Shown here: positions 3,857-62,488 of the stretch, piece after piece
Numbering within the stretch: the first letter of the stretch is position 1
Layout: every line of letters starts with the position of its first letter
Program-made: the position numbers and the translations under genes
Assembly (NCBI GenBank): GCA_963768165.1
Contig: CAVYHJ010000001.1
Coordinates: 277,301-341,300, forward strand
Direction: 5' to 3'
Origin: CAVYHJ01 sp963768165 [NCBI: uncultured bacterium]
Lineage (GTDB): Bacteria; UBP4; UBA4092
Length of the DNA stretch: 64,000 nt
Notes under the pieces: generated by a model
Database searches by the model: none
Seen by the model: the letters and a program-made list of their open reading frames with translations, nothing else
Told to the model about the DNA's origin: nothing

Positions 3857-4039
3857 TGCCAGTTTACAGAATATGGATAACGTAAGGAAATACAAGGCTG
3901 TATTCAATTTTGCAGGATTGGATTGTCACCCGGTTGTACCATTAGGAACAATTTTGTTGACCTTATAGAGCAAGCTAAACAAAAAACCTAATCTGAAGGT
4001 CTCTGACCGAGGAAGGTTGCAAAAAATCTTCCCGGCAAT

Positions 4040-7000
4040 TTATTTCTTTAACAATGTCTGTAAATCTGTAAAAGGCGCATTATTCCCGACAAAAGAAACC
4101 CTATATGGAATTTTGATTGGCGAAGTCGTATCTTTTGGGTTATAGGTATACATCATCCAATCGTTCACGGGAACTGGTTCAGAGACGGTTGTGAAATTCC
4201 ATTGAGCGGACGTACCAGACCCGAAGGCATTTTTCGCCACCACATACCAATCGTACTGGGTATTAGATTGTAAAGTACTCGGTGTCCAATAGGTAACTAA
4301 TAAATTGGATACCGAAGGTGACGTGGGTTGAGAATATCCATCTTTCCAGAGATAGACGTCATATTGGGTAGCCCGGTCAGCAACATTCCAACTCAATAAT
4401 TGGTTCAACGACACATTATTAGTACTGCTATTGGGTTGCGGGAATGCCGGAGCATCCGGCGGAAGGTTGGCAATGGTATTAAACCAGGTATTCGTACTGA
4501 TTGCGGCATTGGTATCGAATATTACATTACCGGCATTGTTAATAATCGTGCCTGCCGTATCCGTGGACTTGGGATACACTGTAAATGAAACAAACCCTGT
4601 ACCTCGTCCTGAACCATCTTCTGGCGGCAGGAAACCTGCCAAGGCGTCATCCGGTATTTGACCCGTTTTGGGGTCAATGATGGTCAATGTCCAGGTAGCT
4701 TGTCCGGTGCCGGAGTTGAAATTACAGGTCACGGTTACCCACCATTGGTTGGTGGTACCCGGACGCCAGTCGGGTATCGTAACCCGTGTAAAATATTGCT
4801 GGGTATCCTGGGAAATTGCAATATTGTTACTTCCAAAAGAAATTCCATTCAAAGCAAAAGTTGAATTATTCAGATATGTAACGAGGTTATCCGTTACGAT
4901 GACCTGTTGTGCCGGGGCTAAAGCCGTAGATTCATTCTCAAAATAAATCATATAATTTAGAGGGTCGGTAACTCCAATATATCGCACACTATCCCCCCCA
5001 TATCCAGCCGGACCGATTTTCTCATTCGGGTCAACCGAACTGACCGCTTGGCATGAGCCACCACTCTTTGTATTAGACAAGGATGATGGTGACGGTGTGG
5101 TAGGGGGTGTTGATGGATGATTTTTAAATTCATCATAAAGATAATTACCAAATCTACCAATTCCATAACCTATTCCAATCCAGGTCTTTGGAATTCTCGA
5201 ACTATAAGACAAATCTTCGATGATTTGTGTGAAGAGGAGTGGTATCTTATCGCCATTCATATATACAAACAAATTCGCATTATTATAAGTTGGAACAGCA
5301 ACATTTTTAATCATATAAACAGCAGCATCACCAGCAGCATCCAAAGCAAAAAAAGCAACATCAACTGCTGCGCCTATTACTACTTCTGGTGCTAAAAGGG
5401 TTACAATTACAGCGCCAAGAATAAGACCTTTAGTGGTTCCAGATAATAATCCATTCGGGTCAATTAAATTCACCGGATTATTAACACAATAAGTATAAAG
5501 ATTAACTCCACCAACGATATTGATGGGGTCTTCTGTTACAAAGCGTCCGATATTAGTTGCATAATATCTATTTCTCATAAAATTTATTGAATTGCCGTCA
5601 GCTATGACCCCAAACCGTCCGACATACTGGAAAATGTTACTAATAGATTCCTGTTGGGTTAATAAAATCCCAAAAGGTGTGTAATCATAACTGTTAAGTA
5701 TGTTGCCGGTTGTACCTGTCAATTCCCTTGTATTTCCAATCGCATCAAAATCATAATACGCTTGAGTACCCGTACCCGCATCCTGCCGTGCAATCAGTCC
5801 GAGTCCGTAGGTATACTGGGCAATAGGAGTATTGGAATTATCGTATTCGCCAGCCAGTGCGCCGCCACTGATGGGGTCATAAATATAATGTCGGGTAACA
5901 CCGTTAATAGTGACCGTAGCCCGGTTTCCCAAGGCATCGTAGGTATAGTTCCATGTAGTAGCCAGGGATACCACACTGATTAATCTATTTTCAAAATCAT
6001 AGGTATAAAAAGTAGTTTTCCCGCTGACTACCATCGTTAGCATGTTCCCGTCGGTATCGTAAGAAAAAGTAGTTCCACCTGCTTGAGAATATTGGTTCAT
6101 AATATTGGTGGAATAGTTGGAGAGAGTATTATTGTTCTTGACTGAAATCCGGTTTCCCGCGGAGTCGTAGGTGTATGTTTCCACACTTCCCGTCGAATAG
6201 AACACTGCCGTCAATTGACTGAGGGCATCATATTTATACCGGGTGGTTCCCTGTAGGGTAGTCATGGAAGTCCGGTTGCCCAAAGAATCGTAGGTATAAA
6301 TAAACTGAGAAAGGGTGGAAGAACCACTGGGAGCATAATTCATCATGCTTAAAATTTGTCCGGCAGAATCATAGGTATATTGGGTATAAACCCCGTTTCC
6401 CTTGGTTTCTTGAGTGACTTTCCCGGCACTGTCATAGGTGTATTGTATGAGTGTGGTTGACCCGCTGGTAAGTTGGAGCAAACGTCCAGCGGTATCATAG
6501 GAATAATTTAAAATTGTACTGCTTTGGTCAATCCGTTGGGTCAGTTTACCGCCGGAATCGTAAGAATAGGAAAAGAATTGTCCCGTGGGATAAGTAATTT
6601 GGGTAAGGAAATCCCGTGAGTCATATTGCATAGAGATAGTACCTGTAGAATCCGTGGCGGAGGTTAGACGATTAAACGAGTCATAGGTATACGTCACGAA
6701 ACTACCATCAGGATAATTCTTTCGGGTGGGCTGACCGTTCGTATTGTATAGATAGGTAATTTTCTGTCCTTTACGATTGGTGGCGCTGGTTGCATTTCCA
6801 AAGGTATCATAGATAAAAGATTTGGAAGATGAATCAGGGGATACAATGGTTAATAAATTTCCCTTGGTGTCATAACTGAAAGTCGTGAGGTGTTGCTTGG
6901 CATCCTGCAAAGACGAAAGCTTATTGAAATTTGAAGAATAAGATAAATTGATTATATGACCCGCCGCATCAAGAATGCCATTGGTAAGACCTTGGAGATT

Positions 7001-9256
7001 ACTTCCCAATAATGAAATATTATTGGCAGGGTCAATCACGGATGCGAGATTAAGATTTTGGTCATAATTGTATTGAATGATTTGATTTAAAGGGTTTTGG
7101 ATTTGCAGAATCTGTCCTTGGGGACCCAAGCGAACCAATGTATTATTCCCCAGATTATCCGACACTGTAATAGTCCCCTGGGAATCATAAGCATATTGAA
7201 TCAAACCAACTCCCCCGTCTTGATATTGTTGAGAAAGTCTACCCAAATTATCGTATTGGAAATATAAATGGGTATTGTCCGGGAAGGTAATGGAACTCAA
7301 ACTATGGTCATAGGGAGTTCCCGGTAATTGATTATTACTATATTGAGTGATAATACCACCCGATCCGGTAACTTGTGTCAAGTATTGTCCGCTACCATCA
7401 TATTGATAATTGGTGGTTCGATTGGCATAATCAATGACTTGCGAAATGCGATTATTTCCATTGTAGTTCATCTGAATCGCCTGACCATTGGAATGAGTTA
7501 CGGAGACCAGGTTTCCACTGTTATATCCCATCGTGAGGGTATTCCCATTAGGTTCAGAGATTGAAGTTAGAACACCGGTGGTGCTGAAATGATAGGTCAG
7601 TCCATTGAGTTCAATCAAGGCAAAGGAATGGTCGGACAAGGTGGTTAAGTTCCCATAGTCTCCGGTGAGGGGTTGATAAGTTCCATTGGAATTGCGATTA
7701 AATTGTCTACCTCTCCCGCCCGCGTCATTCACCAATATGGAACTATCGTTATTAAAACTCAATGAGTATTCATACTCATGATACCATCCATAGCCCAACG
7801 CGCCTAGATGAAACCGGCGGTCAATCATTTGTGGTGCCACCCGAGCAAAAGATAATCCCAGTTCTGGCCCTGGCAATGAAACATCCACGGCACTTGCCAG
7901 CAGGGACTGGACGCTCTGTCCCTCGGCTTTTAGAATTTCAAAATTATATAAATCATTGATACTATAAATCGCCTTATTCTGTGGAACCGGTTGAAGCGCG
8001 AGAGTTGTATTTACTCCACCGGTATAGACATGATAATACTGGTAGAGATAATTGGCATCGTTAATTAAGGCATTTTGATAATCCGCCCAAGTTGAGCCCA
8101 TTTGTGTACTCAAGTTGGATAAGACCGCCTGCCAGGCTGAACTATCCATATTCGTAGGTTGAGTAAAGGTGGATTGCTGCGACCAATTAATAGGTGTGGT
8201 ATCTGTTACAGTCTGTGTAAGATTAAATTGGAGTTGTGTGTAGGCAGGAACCGTATTGGAAACATAATAATAAATGGGTATACTGTAGGCTTGTCCCGGA
8301 TGGAGTATACCGGGAGTGGTATCTATGGCAATTCCTAAAAGCGAAACCGTCCCAATGGAATAGGGGTCTTGGTCGGATAGACGCAGGGGCAGATTTTGTG
8401 GACCGATAACATTAAGTAGGGGAGCAGGAATATCTTGATTCCCTTCATTTTCATATTCTACGATTGCCGTGTATTCCCGACCTCTGCGAACAGAGGAGGG
8501 AACATTGATTCCTGTTTGAAGGAGGGAGAGTACGATATTATTCATATCTTGCACCCACACATCATTCAGAAAACTTCCATCATCCCCCCCAAAGATCGTC
8601 ATCCGATTATTAACAGCATCGTAAACCGCAGTATGGGAGCATCGCGTCGCTGGGTAACCATATAGAGGGTCAAGAATAGAAGAAAGCTTTGTCCAAGTAG
8701 AGGTTGTAGTATCCCTTCCATTGGCATTTCTGAGTACCCAGACATCATTGAAGTAATTACTAATATTAAATCCTCCAAAGATGGTCATCTGATTGTTGGT
8801 ATTATCATAAACTGCCGTATGCCCGTATCGTACTGCCGGTGTGCTACCAACGGTAGTAATTTTTGTCCAAGTGGGCGTTCCCCCCAGCCCATTGGCATTA
8901 CTGAGTACCCATACGTCATTGAAAGAAACCCCTCCATCATTATACCCCCCAAAGATCGTCATCCGATTATTTGTTGCATCGTAGACCGCAGTTTGCCAGT
9001 ATCGCGTGGTCGGAGCACTCCCGGTCGGAAAGAGTTGTGTCCAAGCAGGGGTTCCTCCCAGTCCATTAGCATTGCTGAGCACCCAAACATCATTATTTAC
9101 ATGAGGGAAAGGACCTAAACCTCCAAAGATTGTCATCCGATTATTGGCAGCGTCGTAGACGGCTGTATGCCCTTCTCGCGTCGTCGGAGTACTTCCGGTA
9201 GTAATAATTTGAGTCCAAGAGGGGGTTCCTCCTAATCCATTGGCATTGCTGAGCAC
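4040..9256 (-). CDS. Kelch-RHS-Fn3 giant secreted protein, main part (frameshifted)
   Basis: A 1738-residue open frame that continues the signal-peptide fragment at 9268-9687. In order: about four more kelch units (N-D-V-W-V-L-S-N-A-N-G ... M-T-I-F-G-G) to residue about 237; a CARDB-like beta domain; a DUF6531-like region near residue 457; many YD repeats (Y-T-Y-D-S-A-G-N-R); an RHS core ending in I-N-F-M-R-N-R-Y-Y and N-L-I-D-P-N-G-L near residue 1264; and a hydrophobic segment of about 140 residues. A D-P-N-E-K-I-G-P-A-G-Y-G module of the type found after RHS cores and a fibronectin-III domain near residue 1600 complete it. Unlike polymorphic toxins, the RHS core is internal, not terminal. 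It is likely an exported surface or adhesion protein. IS elements are absent here. Confidence 0.8.
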   Translation of the reverse strand: MLSNANGLGGTPSWTQIITTGSTPTTREGHTAVYDAANNRMTIFGGLGPFPHVNNDVWVLSNANGLGGTPAWTQLFPTGSAPTTRYWQTAVYDATNNRMTIFGGYNDGGVSFNDVWVLSNANGLGGTPTWTKITTVGSTPAVRYGHTAVYDNTNNQMTIFGGFNISNYFNDVWVLRNANGRDTTTSTWTKLSSILDPLYGYPATRCSHTAVYDAVNNRMTIFGGDDGSFLNDVWVQDMNNIVLSLLQTGINVPSSVRRGREYTAIVEYENEGNQDIPAPLLNVIGPQNLPLRLSDQDPYSIGTVSLLGIAIDTTPGILHPGQAYSIPIYYYVSNTVPAYTQLQFNLTQTVTDTTPINWSQQSTFTQPTNMDSSAWQAVLSNLSTQMGSTWADYQNALINDANYLYQYYHVYTGGVNTTLALQPVPQNKAIYSINDLYNFEILKAEGQSVQSLLASAVDVSLPGPELGLSFARVAPQMIDRRFHLGALGYGWYHEYEYSLSFNNDSSILVNDAGGRGRQFNRNSNGTYQPLTGDYGNLTTLSDHSFALIELNGLTYHFSTTGVLTSISEPNGNTLTMGYNSGNLVSVTHSNGQAIQMNYNGNNRISQVIDYANRTTNYQYDGSGQYLTQVTGSGGIITQYSNNQLPGTPYDHSLSSITFPDNTHLYFQYDNLGRLSQQYQDGGVGLIQYAYDSQGTITVSDNLGNNTLVRLGPQGQILQIQNPLNQIIQYNYDQNLNLASVIDPANNISLLGSNLQGLTNGILDAAGHIINLSYSSNFNKLSSLQDAKQHLTTFSYDTKGNLLTIVSPDSSSKSFIYDTFGNATSATNRKGQKITYLYNTNGQPTRKNYPDGSFVTYTYDSFNRLTSATDSTGTISMQYDSRDFLTQITYPTGQFFSYSYDSGGKLTQRIDQSSTILNYSYDTAGRLLQLTSGSTTLIQYTYDSAGKVTQETKGNGVYTQYTYDSAGQILSMMNYAPSGSSTLSQFIYTYDSLGNRTSMTTLQGTTRYKYDALSQLTAVFYSTGSVETYTYDSAGNRISVKNNNTLSNYSTNIMNQYSQAGGTTFSYDTDGNMLTMVVSGKTTFYTYDFENRLISVVSLATTWNYTYDALGNRATVTINGVTRHYIYDPISGGALAGEYDNSNTPIAQYTYGLGLIARQDAGTGTQAYYDFDAIGNTRELTGTTGNILNSYDYTPFGILLTQQESISNIFQYVGRFGVIADGNSINFMRNRYYATNIGRFVTEDPINIVGGVNLYTYCVNNPVNLIDPNGLLSGTTKGLILGAVIVTLLAPEVVIGAAVDVAFFALDAAGDAAVYMIKNVAVPTYNNANLFVYMNGDKIPLLFTQIIEDLSYSSRIPKTWIGIGYGIGRFGNYLYDEFKNHPSTPPTTPSPSSLSNTKSGGSCQAVSSVDPNEKIGPAGYGGDSVRYIGVTDPLNYMIYFENESTALAPAQQVIVTDNLVTYLNNSTFALNGISFGSNNIAISQDTQQYFTRVTIPDWRPGTTNQWWVTVTCNFNSGTGQATWTLTIIDPKTGQIPDDALAGFLPPEDGSGRGTGFVSFTVYPKSTDTAGTIINNAGNVIFDTNAAISTNTWFNTIANLPPDAPAFPQPNSSTNNVSLNQLLSWNVADRATQYDVYLWKDGYSQPTSPSVSNLLVTYWTPSTLQSNTQYDWYVVAKNAFGSGTSAQWNFTTVSEPVPVNDWMMYTYNPKDTTSPIKIPYRVSFVGNNAPFTDLQTLLKK

Positions 9257-9267
9257 CCAAACATCAT

Positions 9268-9687
9268 TTAGATCACCACTACCGCTACTATTCCCCCCCC
9301 AAAGATCGTCATCCGATTATTAGCAGCATCATAGATGGCAGTATGATCGGCTCGTATTACCGGTAGTCCATTATACCCGTTGGTAGTTTGAGTTGGATCA
9401 GGATTCGGAGAAAGCTTTACCCAAGTGGGTGTTCCCCCAAGTCCATTGGCATTGCTGAGTACCCATACATCATTGAGATAACTATAATTCATATATCCCC
9501 CGAAGGTAATCATCCGATTATTGGCAGGATCATATACCGCTTTAGGAGAGTATCGCATTGTCGGAGAGCTCAGTGTATTTCCATTTGCAATAAGCTGCGT
9601 CCAAGTCTGTGCCTGCATACGAATAACGACCATACATAACATAAGAGACATGGATATTATGCCTAGCTTTTTGGTAATACTTTTCAT
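9268..9687 (-). CDS. Kelch-RHS protein, N-terminal part with signal peptide
   Basis: This is the 5' end of the giant kelch-RHS gene. The start at 9687 has AAGGA 7 nt upstream. Residues 1-27 form a signal peptide (K-K-L-G-I-I-S-M-S-L-M-L-C-M-V-V) with likely cleavage after M-Q-A. Two kelch units follow. The frame leaves the kelch pattern at a run of eight G (plus-strand C8 at 9293-9300), inside I-F-G-G-G. With nine G the frame would read on as N-S-S-G-S-G-D-L-N-D-V-W-V-L straight into the downstream frame. The break is therefore a one-base length change in a homopolymer: phase variation, decay or sequencing error. Confidence 0.8.
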   Translation of the reverse strand: MKSITKKLGIISMSLMLCMVVIRMQAQTWTQLIANGNTLSSPTMRYSPKAVYDPANNRMITFGGYMNYSYLNDVWVLSNANGLGGTPTWVKLSPNPDPTQTTNGYNGLPVIRADHTAIYDAANNRMTIFGGGIVAVVVI

Positions 9688-11644: not shown

Positions 11645-11742
11645 TGGAAAAAAAGGGCAAGAAAAATAAGGAGGCAGGCATCGGGAATAGATGGATACTC
11701 GATAAGGACATTCGAGTACAAATTCCCGATGCATCTTTAAAT

Positions 11743-11767
11743 GTCGAGTCGGGAGACTCGACCTATC
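11743..11767. repeat. Short palindrome shared with 15315-15329
   Basis: GTCGAGTC (11743-11750) pairs with GACTCGAC (11755-11762). The following bases share GAGACTCGACCTATC with 15315-15329. Both copies lie just downstream of the 3' ends of minus-strand genes (aldo/keto reductase and nucleotidyltransferase), so they may act as 3'-end hairpins. Confidence 0.55.
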
Positions 11768-12754: not shown

Positions 12755-12773
12755 GTGAATATCGCCCTAATTT

Positions 12774-12860
12774 GTCATTCTGAGTGTAGCGAAGAATCTC
12801 TGTGTTCTACTTTCGTTTTAGCGACTTTGGGCAGGGATTCTTCGCTACACTCAGAATGAC
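12774..12860. repeat. 87-bp palindromic repeat, family A copy 1
   Basis: Perfect 25-bp inverted arms (12774-12798 and 12836-12860; core CATTCTGAG...GAAGAATC) surround a 37-nt loop that begins TCTGTGTTCTAC. An element of exactly the same length and loop start occurs at 27325-27411, and a half copy at 15258-15282. It lies between the convergent-side end of efp and the start of the aldo/keto reductase. This motif is widespread as a dispersed repeat in environmental bacterial genomes. Confidence 0.9.
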
Positions 12861-12876
12861 AGGGATTGTTGAAAAT

Positions 12877-13807: not shown

Positions 13808-13877
13808 CCACTTAATCCAAATTTAATCCCCATCACAAAGCACCCCAAACTCAATAAATACCGAATCAATAGCGGAG

Positions 13878-13912
13878 TTGAAGTGGAATTGAAATTTTCA
13901 ATTCCACTTCAA
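13878..13912. repeat. Covarying hairpin, family B copy 1
   Basis: TTGAAGTGGAATTG pairs with CAATTCCACTTCAA around a short A/T loop. It shares the inner GGAATTG/CAATTCC stem with hairpins at 31811-31839, 57585-57621 and 62059-62097, but the outer stem bases differ and stay complementary. It lies in the 240-bp gap before the VOC gene. Confidence 0.8.
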
Positions 13913-14046
13913 GTCCACTACTCCATCGGTATATCTTTAAAAAAAAGCGTGTTTATTCCTGATACGGAGCTAATTGATTTAGGTAGGATTTGTGTAGTAG
14001 GATTAATTAGATTCAAGAATTGAGCGAAAGATTGGAGGATATAATT

Positions 14047-15151: not shown

Positions 15152-15257
15152 CCCAACCTGAAATTCTACAGAATTAAATTTATATCCTTTTTAAAAAGTG
15201 TTTTCTGCAATCAAAGAATCCCCTTTAAAAGTTATCTTGTTTCCGGTAAAACACCGG

Positions 15258-15282
15258 GATTCTTCGCTCCGCTCAGAATGAC
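15258..15282. repeat. Half copy of palindromic family A
   Basis: A single arm of the family A repeat (GATTCTTCGC ... CTCAGAATGAC), matching the right arms at 12836-12860 and 27387-27411. The complementary arm is absent. A second short repeat, GAGACTCGACCTATC at 15315-15329, shared with 11753-11767, follows just before the nucleotidyltransferase stop. Confidence 0.75.
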
Positions 15283-15335
15283 AATGGGGATGGAAAAAGA
15301 CATTGTCTAATCGTGAGACTCGACCTATCGGGTAT

Positions 15336-27314: not shown

Positions 27315-27324
27315 ATATTAATCT

Positions 27325-27411
27325 GTCATTCTGAGCGCAGCGAAGAATCTCTGTGTTCTACCTGAAGTAACACGACTTTAGACCGGGATTCTTCGCTGCG
27401 CTCAGAATGAC
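27325..27411. repeat. 87-bp palindromic repeat, family A copy 2
   Basis: Perfect 25-bp arms at 27325-27349 and 27387-27411, with a 37-nt loop that starts TCTGTGTTCTAC as in copy 1. It lies between the ligA stop and the MBL hydrolase start. Arms differ from copy 1 at paired positions (GCGCAG versus GTGTAG), so pairing is preserved. Confidence 0.9.
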
Positions 27412-27426
27412 AAGAGTGGAGAATGA

Positions 27427-31727: not shown

Positions 31728-31810
31728 AGTTTTAAGTATATCAAAATCTTACAGATTACCTAACCTCAATAATTTGTCCGTCAAACCACAACGATCCATT
31801 TACGTATCAC

Positions 31811-31941
31811 AAGCGGAATTGAGAATTTCAATTCCGCTTACAAGAGCGAACATGATCGAATTTCTTCGCTACTTGTACAGTTTTGATACGCCTGGCATTT
31901 CCTGGGAATGGTGGAATAAGTGTCGCCAGTGGCGACACTTT
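31811..31941 (+). repeat. Composite structured repeat, copy X
   Basis: In order: hairpin B (31811-31839), a 41-nt spacer, a 36-nt conserved block (31881-31916), and a perfect 10-bp hairpin (AAGTGTCGCC/GGCGACACTT, 31917-31941 with a short loop). The same order and orientation recur on the minus strand at 57621-57476. The 36-nt blocks match at 31 of 36 positions, but the flanking stems differ in sequence while keeping perfect pairing. It lies in the 519-bp gap between the pseudopilin and the first kelch gene. Confidence 0.65.
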
Positions 31942-32061
31942 ATCTTCAATGAAATCAAAGGTCTTATTTTTCGACATTTGGCGAAAAATTATGTACAGTT
32001 GTATCTAATTCTTTCTTTCAAAAAACCGCAATATTTGTTGCAGATTATTTATCTCCAATAA
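31851..32061 (+). CDS. Possible small ORF, or remnant, overlapping the structured repeat
   Basis: A 70-codon frame starting 11 nt after hairpin B. It contains I-S-W-E-W-W-N-K and L-I-F-R-H-L-A-K-N-Y. The second motif resembles G-I-F-R-H-L-A-K-Y-Y in the frame interrupted by two ISs near 59.4 kb. There is no Shine-Dalgarno and the family is not recognised. It may be a decayed gene or a by-chance frame over a structured repeat. Nothing else coding was seen in 31728-32246. Confidence 0.25.
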
Positions 32062-32246
32062 AATCAATCAAATAGAAAACCATAACCAATTGGACATGGT
32101 ATTGGGAGTGTCAAAAGACGATTTCTATAAAACACTGATTTATATAGTGTTAGGAAAAAAGTGTAGTAAATTTCGTTTGAGATGACACTGCTATAGTAGT
32201 GAATAACAATTAGGAGTACAATACAAACATCATAGGAGGATGTAAA

Positions 32247-33398
32247 ATGTTCTACAAACGCATAAGTACAATTTCAATAATATCAATACTTTTTCTTTCA
32301 TTAACCAGTTTCATACAAGCACAGGGTTGGATACGATTAATCTCCAATGAAACCACGTTGAGTGCGCCAACAGCACGATCTCAACATAGTGCTGTTTATG
32401 ATTCTGTGAATAGCCGGATGATTATCTTTGGTGGGATACCAGGAGTTAATGATTTGAATGATGTATGGGTACTGAGTAATGCCAATGGGCTAGGCGGAAC
32501 TCCATCGTGGACACAACTTACAACGACAATACGTACCCCGGAGGCACGAAACAGTCATACAGCAGTCTACGATGCTATCAATAATCGGATGACAATCTAT
32601 GGTGGTAGTAATGACCAGGGAAGCCTTTTTAGTGATGTATGGGTGTTGAGCAATGCCAATGGACTGGATACTACAATTCCAACTTGGACAGAAGTTTATC
32701 CTCCTTCAGACAGCTCTCCAGGATTGCGAGCTGGTCATACAGCAGTCTATGACACTACGCATAATCAAATGATTATTTTTGGAGGTGGAGCAATAAATAA
32801 CTATAACGATGTATGGGTGTTGAGCAATACCAATGGACTGGATAGTACAACTCCTGTTTGGACACAACTTACTACTACGGGTAGTACTCCGACGACGCGA
32901 AGCAGCCATACAGCAGTCTATGATGCTAATAATAATCGAATGACTATTTTTGGAGGATATAATGCCGGGACTTTTCTAAATGATGTCTGGGTACTCAGCA
33001 ATGCCAACGGACTGAGTGGAACTCCCACTTGGACACAACTTTTTCCAACCGGGAGTATCCCAACAACGCGATATGGCCATACAGCGGTCTACGATGCTAC
33101 AAATAATCGAATGACGATCTTTGGGGGATATATTGCCGGGACTTTTCTGAATGATACATGGGTGTTGAGCAATGCCAATGGGCAAGGTGGAATGCCTGTT
33201 TGGACACAACTCTTACCACCCGGGGGTACCCCGACAGTACGAGATGGGCATTCCGCTATCTACGATTCTGCCAGTAATCGCATGACCATCTTTGGAGGCG
33301 GCAATAGTACTAATTATTTGAATGATGCGTGGATATTGATAAATTCAGATTATATTACTTCCGTCCCTAAAGAAATATGGGAGTTGTTGGATGAGTAA
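32247..33398 (+). CDS. Secreted kelch-repeat protein, paralog 1
   Basis: 383 residues with a signal peptide (I-S-I-L-F-L-S-L-T-S-F-I-Q-A-Q, cleaved near residue 25). About six kelch units of roughly 55-60 residues follow, each with H-T-A-V-Y-D, N-N-R-M-T-I-F-G-G and N-D-V-W-V-L-S-N-A-N-G, enough for one beta-propeller. The protein ends I-T-S-V-P-K-E-I-W-E-L-L-D-E, a tail shared with the next gene. AGGAGGATGTAAA precedes the ATG. It is likely exported or surface-exposed, probably binding. It is closely related to the N-terminus of the giant protein at 4-9.7 kb. Confidence 0.9.
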   Translation: MFYKRISTISIISILFLSLTSFIQAQGWIRLISNETTLSAPTARSQHSAVYDSVNSRMIIFGGIPGVNDLNDVWVLSNANGLGGTPSWTQLTTTIRTPEARNSHTAVYDAINNRMTIYGGSNDQGSLFSDVWVLSNANGLDTTIPTWTEVYPPSDSSPGLRAGHTAVYDTTHNQMIIFGGGAINNYNDVWVLSNTNGLDSTTPVWTQLTTTGSTPTTRSSHTAVYDANNNRMTIFGGYNAGTFLNDVWVLSNANGLSGTPTWTQLFPTGSIPTTRYGHTAVYDATNNRMTIFGGYIAGTFLNDTWVLSNANGQGGMPVWTQLLPPGGTPTVRDGHSAIYDSASNRMTIFGGGNSTNYLNDAWILINSDYITSVPKEIWELLDE

Positions 33399-33443
33399 GG
33401 TGCATGTTTTTATTATAAAAATCTAAAATAAGGAGGATGTAAA

Positions 33444-34622
33444 ATGTGTTACAAGCGCATAAGTACAGTTTCAACAATATCAATACTTTTTCTTTCATTA
33501 ATTCATTTCACACAGGCACAGACGTGGACACAACTTACCTGGAGTGGGACTACACCGTCTGCGCGATACGGTCATACGGCGGTCTATGATAATACAAATA
33601 ATCTAATGACTATCTTCGGAGGGTTTGATACTACCAATGATGCTCGGAATGATGTCTGGGTGTTCAGCCATGCCAATGGACTTGATAGTACAATTTCTGC
33701 TTGGATACAGTTCTCACCAACACCCGATCCAACCCAAACTACTAACGGATTTGGGGGATTTCCTGCACCGCGAACGTTGCATACTGCGGTCTATGATAAT
33801 GCAAATAATCTAATGACTATCTTCGGAGGGGTTGATACTACCGTTGATGCTCGGAATGATGTCTGGGTGCTCAGCCATGCCAATGGCCTGGGGGAAACAC
33901 CCGTTTGGACAAAACTCACTCCTACCGGAAGCGCCCCGCCAGTGCGATTTTGGCACACTGCAGTCTATGATACGACCAACAATCGGATGACTATTTTTGG
34001 GGGATTGGCTGGGAGTGATTCAAATGATATCTGGGTGCTCAGCCATGCCAATGGCCTGGGAGGAACATCTGCTTGGACACAGCTCACTCCTACCGGAAGT
34101 GCCCCAACAACACGCGACTCTCATTCGGCAGTCTACGATTCAATTAATAATCGGATGATAATCTTTGGGGGTTGGAATGATAGTGAAGAAAATAGTCTGA
34201 ATGATGTGTGGGTGCTTAGCAATGCCAATGGACTGGGAGGAACACCTGCTTGGACACAGCTCACTCCTACCGGAAGTACTCCGCCAACGCGATGTAATCA
34301 TACGGCAGTCTACAATAATACCAATAATCAGATGACGATTTTTGGGGGGTGGACTGTTTCGAGTGCCCTGAATGATACCTGGGTGCTCAGCCATGCCAAT
34401 GGACTGGGGGGAACACCAGCTTGGACACATATTTCTCCTACCGGAAGTGCTCCGACAACACGATACTCTCATACGGCGATCTACGATAATACCAATAATC
34501 GGATGACGATCTTTGGGGGAGATGGTTCTACGGGTTGTCTAAATGATGTGTGGGTGCTTAACAATATAAATATAAAGATCACCTCCGTACCCAAAGGAAT
34601 ATGGGAGTTGTTGGATAAGTAA
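33444..34622 (+). CDS. Secreted kelch-repeat protein, paralog 2
   Basis: 392 residues, a tandem duplicate of the preceding gene: the same AGGAGGATGTAAA leader, near-identical signal peptide (K-R-I-S-T-V-S-T-I-S-I-L-F-L-S-L), about six kelch units, and the tail I-T-S-V-P-K-G-I-W-E-L-L-D-K. Repeat units within and between the two genes are very similar at DNA level, which favours recombination and slippage. The function is unknown beyond a beta-propeller fold. Confidence 0.9.
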   Translation: MCYKRISTVSTISILFLSLIHFTQAQTWTQLTWSGTTPSARYGHTAVYDNTNNLMTIFGGFDTTNDARNDVWVFSHANGLDSTISAWIQFSPTPDPTQTTNGFGGFPAPRTLHTAVYDNANNLMTIFGGVDTTVDARNDVWVLSHANGLGETPVWTKLTPTGSAPPVRFWHTAVYDTTNNRMTIFGGLAGSDSNDIWVLSHANGLGGTSAWTQLTPTGSAPTTRDSHSAVYDSINNRMIIFGGWNDSEENSLNDVWVLSNANGLGGTPAWTQLTPTGSTPPTRCNHTAVYNNTNNQMTIFGGWTVSSALNDTWVLSHANGLGGTPAWTHISPTGSAPTTRYSHTAIYDNTNNRMTIFGGDGSTGCLNDVWVLNNINIKITSVPKGIWELLDK

Positions 34623-35930: not shown

Positions 35931-35961
35931 ACCCCGTTAGAGACGGCGTTTCTAACGGGGT
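35931..35961. repeat. Palindromic hairpin with ACCCCGTTAGA arms
   Basis: ACCCCGTTAGA and TCTAACGGGGT form an 11-bp perfect stem around a 9-nt loop. It lies between the stop of the PKD gene and the start of the exporter permease. There is no T-tract on the needed side. Hairpins of this sequence type are known as dispersed repeats in many environmental genomes. Confidence 0.85.
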
Positions 35962-56156: not shown

Positions 56157-57451
56157 TAAACGTTCTCTATCTTTCCTATAATAGCGTGATGACCAGCGGG
56201 ATATTGCAATCCCAGGTTCTCACCCTACTCCAATTACTTTCTCAAAAATATCGTGACCAACTTTCTTTTACCCTGATTACCACGGAACACTGGACGGATT
56301 ATTCCAATCAAAAACTTAAAACAGATTTTCGGAAACAATTAAACAATTCGGGTATTCATGTTGTGATTCTGCCTAAATTTCTCCCGACACAACTCCATTA
56401 CTCGGACAAGAAGAATAACCTGCTCCATAAACTCCTTTCCCTAATGCTCTTTCTGGTGGATTTGAAAATAGTATCCTGGGTCAGTGTATGGCAGGTCTTG
56501 CGAAGGAATATTCATATCGTCCAAGCACGCAGTTATGTCCCCGGAATCATTGGAGCCCTATTAAAAAAACTCACACGTATTAAGCTGGTCTTTGATCCGC
56601 GCGGTTTGATTCCCGAAGAACTTCAACTGACTCAAGGGTGGTCTGCGGAGAATCCTTCTTTCAAAAGATGGAAAAGAATAGAAAAATGGTTGTTAAATAA
56701 TTCCGATGCCGTTATTGTATTGTCCCAACCCTTCGCCGACCATTACAAACAAATTGTTCCTGCTTTATCGCCTGTTATCGTGCCGTGTTGTGTGGATACC
56801 GAGCGATTTACCTATGACCGTAATAAACGCTTGGCGCTACGGGCGAAAAATAACTTTACCAATAAATTCATTGTCTTGTATGTCATGGGGCATTATGTCC
56901 CCTATCAGGATTTTGATTCGGCTTTGGATTTATTCCATAAAATCAGCCAGCAGATTCCCCCAGCTCATTTTCTTGTCTTGACTCCGGATATAGCTCAAGT
57001 CACCCAACGTTTAAAAGAAAGCGGAACGGCGCAAGACTGTTACAGTGTATCCAAAGTTCCCTTTGCAGAAGTCCCCGATTATATCACGATGGCAGATATC
57101 GGGTTACTGGCACGGGTTCCCTCCGTCATAAGCAAGGTCGCCTCCCCGGTGAAATTCGCGGAATATCTCGCTTGCGGGGTTCCGGTTTTAGCCCAACCGG
57201 ATATTGGAGACACGGAAAAAGCCCTTGCCACAAAAGACATCGGACAACTGATTAAGAATAACCAATTGACTCCTGAAAATATTACGTGGCTCAAGATCTT
57301 GCAAAACCCGACCGTGCGAGATGACATTGCCAATAAATGCCATTCCAAGGCCATCCAATCCTTCGCCTGGGAAAGTTATCTCGACAACTATCTCGCGTTA
57401 TATCAACAATTGGTTCCTCTTCCTTCCCAAATAACCTCAAGCCAACTTTGA
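56153..57451 (+). CDS. Glycosyltransferase (GT4-like, third of three)
   Basis: 432 residues from a GTG that overlaps the previous stop. A longer frame to 55904 is only an overlap artefact. GT-B layout: N-terminal N-V-L-Y-L-S-Y-N-S-V, a central L-V-F-D-P-R-G-L-I-P-E-E, and the C-terminal P-V-K-F-A-E-Y-L-A-C-G-V-P donor site. It resembles FgaB/WcaI-like enzymes. It is the last of the glycosyltransferase operon, and repeats and an insertion sequence follow. Confidence 0.88.
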   Translation: MINVLYLSYNSVMTSGILQSQVLTLLQLLSQKYRDQLSFTLITTEHWTDYSNQKLKTDFRKQLNNSGIHVVILPKFLPTQLHYSDKKNNLLHKLLSLMLFLVDLKIVSWVSVWQVLRRNIHIVQARSYVPGIIGALLKKLTRIKLVFDPRGLIPEELQLTQGWSAENPSFKRWKRIEKWLLNNSDAVIVLSQPFADHYKQIVPALSPVIVPCCVDTERFTYDRNKRLALRAKNNFTNKFIVLYVMGHYVPYQDFDSALDLFHKISQQIPPAHFLVLTPDIAQVTQRLKESGTAQDCYSVSKVPFAEVPDYITMADIGLLARVPSVISKVASPVKFAEYLACGVPVLAQPDIGDTEKALATKDIGQLIKNNQLTPENITWLKILQNPTVRDDIANKCHSKAIQSFAWESYLDNYLALYQQLVPLPSQITSSQL

Positions 57452-57633
57452 AAGAGGATTGCTTTTATAGGAGATAAAGCTTTTACCAAATGTAAAAGCT
57501 TTCCATCATTTCCATGAAATGTCAGGCGTGTCAAAACGCCACAAAGGGTGTAAATCTTCCCCACGCTGGATGTCTACCTAGCTCTTGGGACTGGAATTGA
57601 AAATAGCAATTCCAGTCCCAATCCAGTTTTAGA
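57452..57633. other. Intergenic region with structured repeats
   Basis: Between the glycosyltransferase stop and the interrupted small ORF. It carries the composite structured repeat in minus orientation (57476-57621) and no supported gene on its own. The same layout is seen at 31811-31941. Confidence 0.5.
57476..57621 (-). repeat. Composite structured repeat, copy Y
   Basis: On the minus strand, in order: hairpin B (57621-57585, TTGGGACTGGAATTG with its complement), a 47-nt spacer, a 36-nt block (57536-57501) matching copy X at 31 of 36 positions, and a perfect 11-bp hairpin (AAAGCTTTTAC/GTAAAAGCTTT, 57502-57476). The order and orientation match 31811-31941, but both hairpin stems have different bases and remain fully paired. 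Confidence 0.65.
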
Positions 57634-57778
57634 ATGGATTTCTTGGTAACTTTAATAAAAACTTGTCCTCGAAGTAATAAGTCTTGCCCGACATTTCTTG
57701 GAAATGGTAGAAACTGTGGACAGTATCCAGAGTTTCCAAAGGTGGCACGGACACCTTTGAAAATAATTGTCTGCAAGG

Positions 57779-59384
57779 GAGGCTGTCCCAAAATAGTCCT
57801 TGACAGAGGGGATATAATAGAAAGAGAAAGTAAGAGATTGAAAGAAGCGAGGAGAGACGATGTCATTTAAGAAGTATGACCAGGATCAAATGGAATTACT
57901 ACCGCGCTCGGTGCACGACTATTTGCCGGAGGGGCATTTGGCAAAAGTGGTGAATGCGGTGGTGGAGCGGTTGGATATAAGCCAGATACGGGAGCGCTAT
58001 TCGGAGAGCGGGTGTTCGGCGTATGAACCGGGGATGATGGTGAAGGTCTTATTTTATGGATATGCCTGCGGGGAGAGGAGTTCCCGGAAGATGGGGAGCC
58101 GCTTGGAGAGTGATCTGGCGTATATGTATTTAGCGGGGCATCAGGTGCCGGATTTTCGGACGATCAACCGGTTTCGCCAAGACCACCTGGATTTGTTAAA
58201 GGAACTGTTTGGTCAGATTGTTCGGTTGTGCCTGGAGATGGGCATGGTTCAGGTGGGAAGGATTGCTCTGGACGGGAGTAAATTCAAAGCGAATGCCTCG
58301 GAGCGGCGGATGAAACGCAAAGAGGATGTGGAACGGGAGATCGAGCGGATATTGCAGGAATCCCACGAGGTGGATGAGCAAGAGGACCGGGAGTATGGAG
58401 ACCGTAGTCCCTATGAAGGATTACCGGAGGTCAAGGATGGGAAAGAACTTCTGCAGCGGTTGGAGGAAGCCCAACAGAGATTGGAAAAGGAAGGAAGGAA
58501 GCAGATTAATTTAACCGATGGGGATGCCACGACCATGTTTCATCAGAACCGCTATCCACTCACCTCGTATAACGGACAGATTGCGGTAGAGGCAGAGAAG
58601 GGATTGATTGTGGCGGCGACGGTGTCCACGAAACCAACCGATCAACCGGCGGTGGTGGAACTGCTTGAACAGATGGAAGAACATCTGGGAGAGAAGCCCC
58701 GGGAGGTGTTGGCGGACAGCGGGTTTTCTTCCTATGCGAATCTGACGTATTTGGAGCAGAAAGGGATTACCGGATATATTCCCGATCCCAAGCAACAGAG
58801 TCTCGAGCGCGGGACTTCCAAACACCCGGAGTTTTCAAAAAGTCACTTTCGTTATGAAGAAAAAGCGGATCAATACATATGTCCGGAAGGACAACCCTTG
58901 CCCTATCTGAGACGGCAACAAGATGACTTGGGGGTGTGGTGCAAAGTCTACCAGGGGAGCCGGTGTTCCGGTTGCTCTCGGAAGTCGGAGTGCACTCGTT
59001 CCAAAGCCCGGTGGGTCACACGGCATCCCCAGGAAGAAGCGTTGGAAAGAATGCGGCGCCGCTTACAAACCCCGGAAGGGAAACGAATTTATGCCCAACG
59101 GCAAACCCTGGTCGAACCAGTCTTTGGACATCTGAAACACAACCTGCGCTACCGTGATGTGCTGTTACGCGGGAAAGTCAAAGTGACCGGGGAATTCTTC
59201 TTGATGTGTATCGGGCATAATCTGAAAAAGATCGCCACGTTCTTTATCCTTCCTCCAAAACACCCTCGAAATTCTACCTATCTGCTTGTGGCAGCATAAT
59301 CTCAGGACCTTTTTCTTTCGCAGGAACCCTTCCCTATCAAACTCTTTATAACTCCATTGTAAAAATCTATTTTGGGACAGCCTC
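57779..59384 (+). mobile_element. IS1182-family insertion sequence, complete
   Basis: The 18-bp perfect terminal inverted repeats GAGGCTGTCCCAAAATAG (57779-57796) and its complement (59367-59384) bound a 1606-bp element. A 5-bp target duplication CAAGG flanks it (57774-57778 and 59385-59389). A single transposase gene fills it. Its base composition is clearly richer in GC than neighbouring genes, which fits recent arrival. Confidence 0.92.
57860..59299 (+). CDS. IS1182-family transposase
   Basis: 479 residues. An N-terminal DUF772-type domain (A-Y-E-P-G-M-M-V-K-V-L-F-Y-G-Y) precedes a DDE domain with Asp in R-I-A-L-D-G-S-K-F, Asp in V-L-A-D-S-G-F-S-S, and Glu in L-V-E-P-V-F-G-H-L-K. A cysteine cluster (C-P-E-G ... 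C-S-G-C-S-R-K-S-E-C) lies between the last two acidic residues. Intact, so probably active. GGAG lies 6 nt before the ATG. Confidence 0.95.
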   Translation: MSFKKYDQDQMELLPRSVHDYLPEGHLAKVVNAVVERLDISQIRERYSESGCSAYEPGMMVKVLFYGYACGERSSRKMGSRLESDLAYMYLAGHQVPDFRTINRFRQDHLDLLKELFGQIVRLCLEMGMVQVGRIALDGSKFKANASERRMKRKEDVEREIERILQESHEVDEQEDREYGDRSPYEGLPEVKDGKELLQRLEEAQQRLEKEGRKQINLTDGDATTMFHQNRYPLTSYNGQIAVEAEKGLIVAATVSTKPTDQPAVVELLEQMEEHLGEKPREVLADSGFSSYANLTYLEQKGITGYIPDPKQQSLERGTSKHPEFSKSHFRYEEKADQYICPEGQPLPYLRRQQDDLGVWCKVYQGSRCSGCSRKSECTRSKARWVTRHPQEEALERMRRRLQTPEGKRIYAQRQTLVEPVFGHLKHNLRYRDVLLRGKVKVTGEFFLMCIGHNLKKIATFFILPPKHPRNSTYLLVAA

Positions 59385-59511
59385 CAAGGATGACAATTTT
59401 ATCTCCTTTAATAGAATAGCTGGTGGATTTCAGCCAATTGGAATATTTCGCCATTTGGCGAAATATTATTGGTTGATTGATTTTATTGAGGATAAAAAAC
59501 CTTTAACAAAT

Positions 59512-60714
59512 GAGACCTCTGAAAAAGTATTGTTTTTGTTTTACAAGAGTGATAAATAAAAAAAGAGAAGGTTGAGGAGGAGGAAAGAAGCGGTTGGGAG
59601 AGTCCAACGACCTTTGGAGGAGTCTCCAAAGAGGAGAATACACTGGTATTCTTGTCCTTTTCGGATTAAGGAGACACAACTCCCCTGCGTTTGACCATCC
59701 GGACCAGATTCTCGGCCATGACCGCCATCTCCAAGAATTGTTTCACTCGTTGTAATCCGCTGACCGTCATCTTGCGTACCCCGCGCCAGAGTTTGAGACA
59801 CCCGAAATACGATTCAATCAGATACCTTTTCTTCTTTTTCCAGCGCTCATTATGTCGTACATCTTCAGGTTTCTGGACTCGGGCATGGCGCTGATTCCGT
59901 AAAATCCCATCCACGATCCCATGGCGTCCCAACCACTCCCGATTCCGTTTCGCATCAAATCCCCGGTCCGCCAGCACGATCCCTTCCTCTCCGGTCAATA
60001 CTTGCGGCAGTAAAAATACATCATGAATATTCGCAGGCACGACTAACGGTCGTCCCCCCAACGTCGTCTTGGGATCATAGCGTAAACACACATTATATCC
60101 ATGCACGATCTTCAAGGGTCCTCGTTTCCCGGTTCCTGCTTCCGGTTCTAAGGGTTTCCCTTCTGGATCTGTGGCCTCTTTCTTATGATGACTTTCCACG
60201 AGGGTCGCATCCACAATCACCACACTCCCTTTCTTTAAGGACACCTTCTGCCGTCCTAACTGTTCTTCAAACCAGCCCCACAACTCGTTCTCCACTCCCG
60301 CCTGGCGAATTCTCTCCCGAAACTTCACCAGCGTCGTATCATCCGGCACTTCCTCCCCAAAAGCAATCCCCACAAACTCCCGAAAGGACAACCGATCCGT
60401 AACCTCTTCAACTACCCGCACATCTGACAGATTATAAATCCTTTCCAACAACCATATCCGAAATAATACCTCCGGCGCATACCCCGGACGTCCCTGATCC
60501 TTCGAATACATTCCTTCCAACCGTTGATGCAGTCCCTTCCAATCCAGCATCCCTTTCAGTTTCTCCAAAAACTTCCCGGTCTTCGTATCCAACTCCATCC
60601 ATCCTTGCAGTAAGTGTCCTTGTCCTTTTTCTTCCCCGATCATGTGTCTCTCCTTTTAGGTTTTCCTTCCCATACTCTCAATCCCAACAAAAGGTAGACT
60701 TTTTCAGAGGTCTC
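59512..60714 (-). mobile_element. IS5-family insertion sequence, complete
   Basis: The 17-bp terminal repeats GAGACCTCTGAAAAAGT (59512-59528) and its complement (60698-60714) bound a 1203-bp element. AAAT flanks both sides (59508-59511 and 60715-60718). The exact duplication length, 4 or up to 6 bp (CAAATG), is ambiguous. It lies 127 bp from the IS1182 element, and the two differ in family, so they do not form a composite transposon. Confidence 0.9.
59666..60643 (-). CDS. IS5-family transposase
   Basis: 325 residues. DUF772-type N-terminal domain (G-Y-A-P-E-V-L-F-R-I-W-L-L-E-R) and DDE residues in V-I-V-D-A-T-L-V, I-V-L-A-D-R-G-F-D, and Y-L-I-E-S-Y-F-G-C-L-K. Complete, without frameshift. 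It reads opposite to the IS1182 transposase. Confidence 0.94.
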   Translation of the reverse strand: MIGEEKGQGHLLQGWMELDTKTGKFLEKLKGMLDWKGLHQRLEGMYSKDQGRPGYAPEVLFRIWLLERIYNLSDVRVVEEVTDRLSFREFVGIAFGEEVPDDTTLVKFRERIRQAGVENELWGWFEEQLGRQKVSLKKGSVVIVDATLVESHHKKEATDPEGKPLEPEAGTGKRGPLKIVHGYNVCLRYDPKTTLGGRPLVVPANIHDVFLLPQVLTGEEGIVLADRGFDAKRNREWLGRHGIVDGILRNQRHARVQKPEDVRHNERWKKKKRYLIESYFGCLKLWRGVRKMTVSGLQRVKQFLEMAVMAENLVRMVKRRGVVSP

Positions 60715-60766
60715 AAATGTAAAAAAAGGTAATGTCTTAATTTGAATTTTTACATATTCCTATCTT

Positions 60767-60901
60767 ATGCAAAGGTGTCTCACCAAGCATAGATTCCTCG
60801 GTCGGAGACCTTCGGATAAGAAGAACGGAAAGAAAAAAGAAGTGGATGCCATCCGTCTTCGCCCGCATCCCTACGAATTCTATATGTATTACGATATTTA
60901 A
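60767..60901 (+). CDS. Possible 44-residue ORF before a terminator
   Basis: A short frame M-Q-R-C-L-T-K-H-R-F-L-G ending P-Y-E-F-Y-M-Y-Y-D-I. It lies between the IS5 element and a rho-independent terminator on the same strand (60929-60963). No Shine-Dalgarno was seen. It could be the tail of a gene damaged by the insertion sequences. Support is mainly positional. Confidence 0.25.
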   Translation: MQRCLTKHRFLGRRPSDKKNGKKKEVDAIRLRPHPYEFYMYYDI

Positions 60902-61053: not shown

Positions 61054-61084
61054 AAAAAAGGGGCGGGTCAGAGACCCGCCCCTT
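61054..61084 (-). terminator. Rho-independent terminator of the ParB gene
   Basis: On the minus strand, GGGGCGGGTC and GACCCGCCCC form a 10-bp GC-rich stem with a short loop, followed by six T (61059-61054). It lies just after the ParB stop. Confidence 0.88.
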
Positions 61085-61090
61085 CAAGAA

Positions 61091-61951
61091 TTATTGGTTT
61101 TGGAGAGACATCCCTGTTCTCTGCAACATAATGTCCTGAATATGACTGTCAAACTTTTGCAGCCATTGTTGAATCTCCTGGGACATGGTCATCATTCCCA
61201 ACACTTGATCTTCTGGAATTTCAGTAAAGTTCATTGTGCGGTTTTCTATCAACCGGAGGGATTCATAAAATCCTGCCATCTGCCAAAACACCTGTTGAAA
61301 ATCGTGGGATGTCCAAGTCAAATCAATCGGCGGTTGGGGTAAACCAAGTACCCTCTTCTTCTTTTTGCGAGATGATTCCACAGCCGGTTTGCGTGCCGCT
61401 TGTTCCGACAGTGCCGTCCGATAATACATCTCACCAGCCTCAACCTGTTTCTTTAAATCATCATCTAAGCCTTGTAATTGTAGGAATTTATAGATTTCTT
61501 TTGGATGTCTTTTAAAGATTCTACCAGCCTCCTCATAGAATAATTCGCCATCGGGCGAAATACTCTTTTCTTCTGTTTTAGGTCCCATCTTGATGAGACC
61601 ATACTTTTGTTCCCACAAGCATTTTCGTTGGACGAGCAATTCGCACATCTCGATGGCGTTAAAGTCCTTGCGTTTCAGGTTTTCCTCCATCGAAATATCG
61701 AATTGTTCCAAGGTATCTTTGGGTTGGAGAACGGTGATGGGAACTTCCGTCCAACCTAACGCCTCCGCCGTTTTCAATCTCCGAAACCCGGCAATCAATT
61801 CATACGGCGGTTGGGCACTTGCGCCCAAGTCCCTGACGACAATGGGATGAATCATCCCATAGGTTTGCAGAGTTTGTTTCAACTCCTCCTGATTCCCCGG
61901 ATCAATCCGGTGACTGGTCGAGACCGAAATCTCGCTAATCTTTGCTTTCAT
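61091..61951 (-). CDS. ParB-like partition/nuclease-domain protein
   Basis: 286 residues from the ATG at 61951, with AAAGGAGGAAAGG upstream. The ParB N-terminal domain has I-S-E-I-S-V-S, I-H-P-I-V-V-R, and the CTP-binding patch Y-E-L-I-A-G-F-R-R and E-E-N-L-K-R-K-D-F-N-A-I-E near residue 90. A helix-turn-helix region follows (A-G-R-I-F-K-R-H-P-K-E-I-Y). It is probably a chromosome- or plasmid-segregation-like or mobile-element regulator. No ParA is adjacent. The right-hand copy at 63328 is identical where compared. Confidence 0.85.
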   Translation of the reverse strand: MKAKISEISVSTSHRIDPGNQEELKQTLQTYGMIHPIVVRDLGASAQPPYELIAGFRRLKTAEALGWTEVPITVLQPKDTLEQFDISMEENLKRKDFNAIEMCELLVQRKCLWEQKYGLIKMGPKTEEKSISPDGELFYEEAGRIFKRHPKEIYKFLQLQGLDDDLKKQVEAGEMYYRTALSEQAARKPAVESSRKKKKRVLGLPQPPIDLTWTSHDFQQVFWQMAGFYESLRLIENRTMNFTEIPEDQVLGMMTMSQEIQQWLQKFDSHIQDIMLQRTGMSLQNQ

Positions 61952-62058
61952 AAACCTTTCCTCCTTTAGGATAGTTTGTAAGGAAAAGTTTATGGCTCTT
62001 TTTCCAATCCCACTGTCCACTCCATCATGGAAATGGTAAGCACTCAACTTGGTTCGCT

Positions 62059-62097
62059 CTTGTAAGCGGAATTGAAAATAACAATTCCGCTTACAAG
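62059..62097. repeat. Covarying hairpin, family B copy near ParB
   Basis: CTTGTAAGCGGAATTG and CAATTCCGCTTACAAG form a perfect 16-bp stem around AAAATAA. It lies between the small membrane protein and ParB genes. Its mirror copy is at 63182-63220. The bases next to it on the ParB side share GTTCGCTC with copy X at 31.8 kb. Confidence 0.85.
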
Positions 62098-62122
62098 ACG
62101 AAAGAAAAAGAAGAAATTGGGG

Positions 62123-62449
62123 TTATTTTAGGGGGTTGCGACCTTGGGCAAAATAGTATAATGGAGCCAATCCGGCAACCAACATGGCTAACCAAAACAC
62201 CCGTTGAGAATTCTCTTTAAAGGTTCGTTTGGAAAAATCGGCATACATCCAGATGGAAAGAACGATATGAAGACCAAAGACAATACCATAAATGAATATA
62301 AAAGAAAGGATATTTTCGGTGAGAAAGGTTGTGTCATAGGGCGGAAAAAAAGCATTAAAAAAATCAACCACGAGTTTCACAATGTAATAAATAGCGAATA
62401 GGGTATAGAGTGCAATCAGGATATCCACTATCCAGCGTAACACTTTCAT
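62123..62449 (-). CDS. Small three-helix membrane protein (left arm)
   Basis: 108 residues with hydrophobic segments I-V-D-I-L-I-A-L-Y-T-L-F-A-I-Y-Y near residue 7, I-L-S-F-I-F-I-Y-G-I-V-F-G near 48, and V-F-W-L-A-M-L-V-A-G-L-A near 84, ending Y-Y-F-A-Q-G-R-N-P-L-K. Not recognised. It follows the acetyltransferase fragment by 39 nt and precedes ParB. The right-arm copy at 62822 is frameshifted. Confidence 0.7.
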   Translation of the reverse strand: MKVLRWIVDILIALYTLFAIYYIVKLVVDFFNAFFPPYDTTFLTENILSFIFIYGIVFGLHIVLSIWMYADFSKRTFKENSQRVFWLAMLVAGLAPLYYFAQGRNPLK

Positions 62450-62488
62450 GATAGCTCTATCTTAACAGAAAAAAACGACTGGCAATTA

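What the first reader, a model, noticed from the sequence alone, without database searches (positions are those of the whole stretch)
31811..31941. Composite structured repeat with covarying stems (copy X, matches copy Y at 57.5 kb)
Order in X (plus) and Y (minus, 57621-57476) is the same: hairpin B, spacer of 41 or 47 nt, a 36-nt block (31 of 36 identical), then a perfect hairpin. The hairpin stems differ entirely in sequence (GTGTCGCC versus CTTTTAC) yet stay fully paired. That is the signature of selection on structure. No known RNA or element class fits. A decayed small gene is an alternative.
Basis: partly seen in the sequence, partly recalled or inferred. Interest (0 to 1): 0.68.

Follow-up and report, generated by a model that had tools for sequence, protein, structure and literature searches.

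The report
Mosaic of intergenic DNA hairpin repeats
The two matching stretches are parts of a patchwork of short hairpin-forming DNA repeats lying between genes of an uncultured bacterium, much like the hairpin repeats known from E. coli, and two jumping genes have landed inside one such patchwork.

Summary
In detail: X (31811-31941, +) and Y (57621-57476, -) have the order, spacers, 31-of-36 block and perfect hairpins described, far beyond chance. The reading needs changing. X and Y are not two copies of one compact RNA but stretches of a larger modular repeat, B - block1 - C - block2 - E: palindromic hairpins joined by short conserved linkers. The hairpin B core occurs at four independent loci. 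Two insertion sequences with target duplications (CAAGG, CAAATG) interrupt the Y locus. With them excised in silico it becomes a row of units in alternating orientation sharing hairpins B and E, as in BIMEs. One IS sat exactly mid-loop of a 7-bp hairpin; the other sat in the loop region of a C-type hairpin, a weaker case. B stems covary (5 of 17 pairs), but the C hairpins of X and Y look exchanged rather than stepwise compensated. No coding signal, no Rfam match at gathering score, and no convincing relative in 44 distant genomes, viral contigs, phages or plasmids. The window's own genome is not held. Best explanation: a lineage-specific, REP/BIME-like palindromic mosaic DNA repeat that also receives insertion sequences. 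It lacks consistent GTAG/CGTC tags, and its mobilising enzyme is unknown. Moderate interest.

The parts
31811..31839 (+). X: hairpin B
31880..31916 (+). X: linker block1 (holds the small stem CATTTC/GGAATG)
31918..31940 (+). X: hairpin C (11-bp perfect stem)
31939..31958 (+). X: linker block2, first copy
31966..31990 (+). X: hairpin E (matches 59443-59469)
32028..32041 (+). X: possible short second C-type hairpin, loop ATTTG
   Evidence: inspection; the minimum-energy fold does not use this stem
32048..32069 (+). X: linker block2, second copy
57457..57478 (-). Y: block2
57476..57502 (-). Y: hairpin C
57501..57537 (-). Y: block1
57585..57621 (.). hairpin B shared by units Y (-) and Yr (+)
57676..57712 (+). 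Yr: block1, third copy, inverted relative to Y; similarity is in its last 28 nt
57710..57736 (+). Yr: hairpin C' (imperfect)
57733..57763 (+). Yr: extra hairpin D'
57765..57778 (+). left half of target hairpin AATTGTC-TGCAAGGAT-GACAATT, with target duplication CAAGG 57774-57778
57779..59384 (+). insertion sequence (transposase 57860-59299 with DUF772 and DDE_Tnp_1_6; IS1182-like by recall), inverted ends GAGGCTGTCCCAAAATAG
59385..59398 (+). right half of the target hairpin, with target duplication CAAGG 59385-59389
59396..59412 (+). Yr: block2
   Evidence: 17 nt, 88%; weak alone, E 0.039
59430..59476 (.). hairpin E shared by Yr (+) and V (-)
59475..59496 (-). V: block2
59500..59512 (-). V: one arm and loop of a C-type hairpin, with target duplication CAAATG 59507-59512
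59513..60713 (-). second insertion sequence (transposase 59666-60643 with DUF772 and DDE_Tnp_1; IS5-like by recall), inverted ends AGACCTCTGAAAAAGT
60714..60729 (-). V: other arm of the C-type hairpin, with target duplication 60714-60719
62058..62098 (-). Z: hairpin B (17-bp arms), upstream of a ParB_N gene
13858..13932 (+). W: long hairpin with the B core at its tip

Best explanation
A lineage-specific family of palindromic mosaic repeats between genes that works like REP/BIME elements. SHOWN: hairpin modules (B, C, E) joined by short conserved linkers (block1, block2), several loci in 64 kb, unit orientation alternating at the Y locus with units sharing their palindromes, and two insertion sequences with target duplications inside it. 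INFERRED: the DNA extrudes hairpins or cruciforms when single-stranded or supercoiled. The repeats spread and rearrange as non-coding DNA through an enzyme encoded elsewhere, or through replication slippage and template switching, which also keeps the stems complementary. Host transposases use the hairpin loops as landing sites where insertion harms no gene.
For: Anatomy and order in X, Y, Yr and V. Four independent B loci, all outside ORFs with a Pfam match. Stem covariation in B. ISs bounded by identical inverted ends (18 and 16 nt) and 5- and 6-bp duplications. V's block2 and C arm match Y's over 43 nt at 81%, E 5.1e-7; only 5 of these nt lie beyond the join across the second IS. The first IS lies exactly at the centre of a 7-bp stem with a 9-nt loop; 63 of 16366 intergenic half-positions (0.4%) are as palindromic. 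No coding pattern in six frames of block1 and no Pfam match for 6 small ORFs. BIME and REP features, and IS targeting of REPs by IS3, IS110, IS4, IS256 and IS5 members, are in print (PMC2817692 passages; PMC3733652 abstract, section 7 and passages; PMC1525189 abstract and passages).
Against: The genome is not held, so copy number is unknown; only four B loci and three block1 copies are known, and alternation is seen at one locus only. None of 10 hairpins has a GTAG or CGTC tag outside its stem within 8 nt (11 entries, W listed twice). Letting the tag reach 3 nt into the stem, 2 of 10 have one (Yr C' GTAG, Z CGTC), where 647 of 5000 random places (13%) do. No REP-type tyrosine transposase was named among the 31 distinct ORFs scanned with Pfam; many other window ORFs were not scanned. 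The V stem is weak (6 bp) and the second C-type stem of X is not in its minimum-energy fold. The second IS site has only a 4-bp perfect stem at its centre, and when 60 nt around either site are folded alone, the first site does not form its target hairpin (the fold of the whole 572-nt empty site does). Two ORFs without Pfam match overlap X (95 aa) and Y (111 aa).
Confidence: 0.66

Rival explanations
1. Ends or remains of one non-autonomous transposon (MITE or foldback type): block2-C-block1 are hairpin-bearing terminal inverted repeats around a core with B; X and Z are truncated copies.
For: Y and Yr form an imperfect inverted repeat around B: block1 arms pair over 28 nt at 86% and, with the IS excised, block2 arms over 17 nt at 88%.
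Against: No target duplication or matching transposase was recognised for such an element (by inspection; no dedicated search was run); X has block1-C-block2 on one side of B only; Z has at most a weak block1-like stretch in the other orientation (14 nt, E 0.14-0.21).
Confidence: 0.18
2. A structured non-coding or cis-regulatory RNA family.
For: Stable folds and covariation in B.
Against: No Rfam match at gathering score in the window; the best weak match is E 0.089, group I intron, 16.6 bits against a cut-off of 50. X lies between divergent genes, Y points at the 3' end of the neighbouring gene, Z lies upstream of a ParB_N gene, so placement is not consistent. Unit orientation alternates within one locus.
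Confidence: 0.1
3. Decayed small gene or protein-coding repeat; a 49-aa ORF on the minus strand of X (31828-31977) and a 95-aa ORF on the plus strand (31774-32061) exist.
For: The ORFs exist. Weak matches of the 49-aa ORF in 15 of 44 genomes at E<=1, best 0.022, and of the 95-aa ORF in 10 of 44, best 0.0155 with three stops inside. Repeating tblastn on 5 of those matched loci alone gave 56% over 25 residues inside a 425-aa frame (E 7e-5) and 42% over 37 (E 1e-4) for the 49-aa ORF; these E-values are for that tiny, pre-selected set.
Against: No Pfam match at E<=10. X versus Y block1: at most 2 of 5 changes synonymous in any frame, and stops arise in 3 of 6 frames. The genome-wide E-values are what 44 searches give by chance.
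Confidence: 0.05

Closest known systems
BIME (bacterial interspersed mosaic elements; E. coli, Stenotrophomonas)
   Same: Several palindromes in alternating orientation with inter-palindrome segments; stem changes keep complementarity (PMC2817692 passages); IS association of E. coli BIMEs is in the title of a reference listed there.
   Different: AT-rich hairpins without a consistent REP tag; several unlike hairpins (B, C, E) in one unit; the linkers are more conserved than some hairpins; associated transposase unknown.
GTAG- and CGTC-tagged REPs and REPINs
   Same: 20-40 nt palindromes dispersed between genes; also reported from the PVC superphylum (PMC3733652 abstract and passages). REPINs known here only from a listing.
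   Different: No tag outside the stem at any of 10 hairpins; a tag overlapping the stem foot at 2 of 10, near the 13% random rate.
IS elements that target REPs (IS1397, ISPpu9, ISPa11 and others)
   Same: Insertion into palindromic repeats, found in IS3, IS110, IS4, IS256 and IS5 families (PMC1525189 abstract and passages).
   Different: Here two different DDE elements sit in one mosaic; one copy of each is all there is to see.
Neisseria mosaic intergenic repeat regions
   Same: REPs interleaved with other repeats in large mosaic intergenic regions (PMC3733652 section 7).
   Different: Sequences not compared here.

Membership tests
BIME-like palindromic mosaic | More than one palindromic unit joined by conserved linkers, outside known genes | tested here: met
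BIME-like palindromic mosaic | Units in alternating orientation | tested here: met
   Y locus with the ISs excised: Y (-), Yr (+), V (-); one locus only
BIME-like palindromic mosaic | High copy number in the genome | not testable with these tools
   genome not held; 4 B loci in 64 kb
REP (GTAG or CGTC superfamily) | Unpaired GTAG or CGTC tag at one foot of the hairpin | tested here: not met
   0 of 10 hairpins outside the stem; 2 of 10 if the tag may reach 3 nt into the stem, random rate 13%
REP/REPIN | Cognate tyrosine transposase (RAYT) in the genome | not testable with these tools
   not named among 31 distinct window ORFs scanned; other window ORFs not scanned; rest of genome not held
MITE / foldback transposon | Constant terminal inverted repeats with target duplication | tested here: inconclusive
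   inverted block1/block2 arms at the Y locus only; duplications of the mosaic itself not searched, none recognised by inspection
Rfam RNA family | Covariance-model score at or above gathering score | tested here: not met
   0 matches in the whole window
Protein-coding gene | Excess of synonymous change or a domain match | tested here: not met

The most novel reading that the evidence does not exclude
The mosaic is a structure-defined landing pad: hairpin loops, not sequence, are the target of two different DDE insertion sequences, and exchange of whole hairpins between fixed linkers (block1|C|block2) reflects a site-specific, single-strand-based module-swapping process not yet described.
Probability: 0.1. 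Interest if true: 0.7.

Novelty: new variant of a known kind. Interest (0 to 1): 0.34.

Why it matters
It shows a BIME-like palindromic mosaic, without the consistent tags of classical REPs, in a poorly known bacterial lineage, and catches two insertion sequences within its hairpins. If copies elsewhere in the genome show the same loop-centred insertions, DNA secondary structure would be shown to guide ordinary DDE insertion sequences.

Tried and rejected
Outside copies: exact block1 and B-flank patterns in viral contigs gave nothing. Block2 gave 3 contigs and the B core 4 contigs; around these I saw no extended stem or other module and they look like coding DNA by inspection (genes not annotated). 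X against plasmids and phages: no match at E<=0.1; the region 57200-60700 against plasmids: none at E<=1e-5. In the 44 genomes of the phylum of G001: block1 pattern with 3 mismatches 0 of 44; X DNA gave matches of up to 65 nt at E<=1 in 31 of 44, best E 0.0065, taken as chance; B pattern with 2 mismatches in 6 of 44, one each, against 3 control matches in 2 of 44. Those genomes are only distant relatives (LigA 54% at best, 40 of 44 matched), so absence there says little.

Covariance model: not built; only two or three copies, with C stems out of register in the MAFFT alignment, so it would mostly have recovered its own inputs. Terminator reading: set aside without running the terminator scan, because X lies between divergent genes and I see no long T run after the hairpins. 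Cis-regulatory RNA: placement inconsistent. In one search the third block1 copy was first cut at the wrong offset; one search repeats it correctly and only one search is used for that copy. In one search several other target-duplication pairs were printed for both ISs (for example AATT, and AAAT one base further out); I chose those next to fully matching inverted ends. The placing of Yr's block2 rests on a short match (E 0.039) plus its order.

Full report
Check. X and Y are as described: hairpin B, spacer of 41 or 47 nt, a block with 31 of 36 (32 of 37) identical, a perfect hairpin. Similarity is far above chance (nhmmer E=8.5e-9; 3 block1 matches against 0 in 100 shuffles).

Wider anatomy. 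Two more modules were missed: linker block2 (31939-31958, 32048-32069, 57457-57478 minus, 59475-59496 minus) and hairpin E (31966-31990 and 59430-59476). The B core GGAATTGNNATTTTCAATTCC is found at 13885, 31815, 57593, 62068 and 63191; the last lies in an inverted duplicate of the contig end, so four loci are independent. They lie outside ORFs with a Pfam match; two ORFs of 95 and 111 aa without a match overlap X and Y. A third block1 (57676-57712 plus) faces Y across the shared B hairpin.

Two insertion sequences. The transposase ORFs 57860-59299 (DUF772, DDE_Tnp_1_6, DDE_Tnp_1) and 59666-60643 (DUF772, DDE_Tnp_1) (the names IS1182-like and IS5-like are recalled) lie in elements 57779-59384 and 59513-60713, with identical inverted ends of 18 and 16 nt and duplications CAAGG and CAAATG. 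Joining the flanks gives an ordered row: block2-C-block1-B (minus), B-block1-C'-D'-block2-E (plus), E-block2-C (minus). V's block2 and C arm match Y's over 43 nt at 81% (E 5.1e-7), but only 5 of those nt lie beyond the second junction, so the join itself rests mainly on the duplications. The first IS lay exactly mid-loop of AATTGTC-TGCAAGGAT-GACAATT; 63 of 16366 intergenic half-positions are as palindromic. That hairpin appears in the fold of the 572-nt empty site, but not when 60 nt around it are folded alone. The second IS lay in the loop of a 6-bp C-type stem with only a 4-bp perfect stem at its exact centre, so loop targeting there rests largely on homology with Y's C hairpin.

Structure or sequence. 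In B, 5 of 17 pairs changed on both sides, 9 never vary, 3 depart only by unpaired cells; 57 of 62 cells (91.9%) are paired; covariation 0.275 against 0.104 shuffled (0 of 500 reach it), while further pair types are not unusual (81 of 500). With four related sequences this control is weak, and palindromes can be kept complementary by template switching between arms (recalled), so it does not prove an RNA. C stems of X and Y share only their basal pairs and are out of register; the V stem is weak and the second C-type stem of X is not in its minimum-energy fold. Exchange of hairpins between fixed linkers is the simpler reading.

Coding. In six frames, X versus Y block1 has at most 2 synonymous changes of 5, with stops in three frames. 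Six small ORFs have no Pfam match at E<=10. The 49-aa and 95-aa ORFs give weak matches in 15 of 44 and 10 of 44 genomes at E<=1. On 5 pre-selected loci alone the 49-aa ORF reached E 7e-5; I read these as chance.

Relatives. The genome is not held. LigA points to a small phylum near a 'PVC group bacterium' MAG, at most 54% identity. No convincing copy was found in its 44 held genomes, in viral contigs (15, 26-28, 42), in phages or plasmids (29, 30), and no Rfam family matched at gathering score (4; weak matches only in 31, 32).

Comparison with known. BIMEs: palindromes in alternating orientation with inter-palindrome segments, whose stem changes stay complementary (PMC2817692, passages). REPs mostly carry GTAG or CGTC tags (PMC3733652, abstract); none of 10 hairpins has one outside its stem, and 2 of 10 have one overlapping the stem foot, near the random 13%. 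IS targeting of REPs spans five families including IS5 (PMC1525189, passages). It therefore works like a BIME, is not shown to be a tagged REP, and no mobilising enzyme is known. Paper searches on BIMEs, IS1182 with palindromes, IS1397, IS loop targets and palindromic repeats in Planctomycetes listed no title on this repeat; the lists show only 15 of 33,854 and 12 of 225 papers, and beyond listings only the three papers named were opened.

Noticed in passing
61279-64000: Near-perfect inverted duplication (98%; 11 substitutions and 12 indel columns in a 1362-column alignment, 6 of the 12 in homopolymer context) folding back at about 62636; probably a long-read or assembly fold-back.
   Followed up: partly
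12768-12861, 27319-27412, 15214-15284: Another palindromic repeat family beginning TGTCATTCTGAG...AGCGAAGAATC, in two 94-nt copies and one part copy.
   Followed up: no
11742-11767 and 15304-15329: Short dispersed repeat TGTCKARTCGKGAGACTCGACCTATC, partly palindromic.
   Followed up: no
3988-4014 and 60794-60820: A 27-nt repeat (89%) around AAGGTCTCYGACCGAGGAA, in inverse orientation at two places between the larger ORFs.
   Followed up: no
61058-61084, 35931-35961, 1976-2003: Further perfect or near-perfect hairpins unrelated to B, C or E.
   Followed up: no
61091-61951 (-): ParB_N-domain gene directly downstream of B hairpin Z.
   Followed up: no
32247-34622 and 8551-9615: Kelch-repeat gene at 32247-33398 whose DNA recurs in the next gene and, inverted, in the long ORF at 4040-9256 (that ORF was not scanned).
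   Followed up: no
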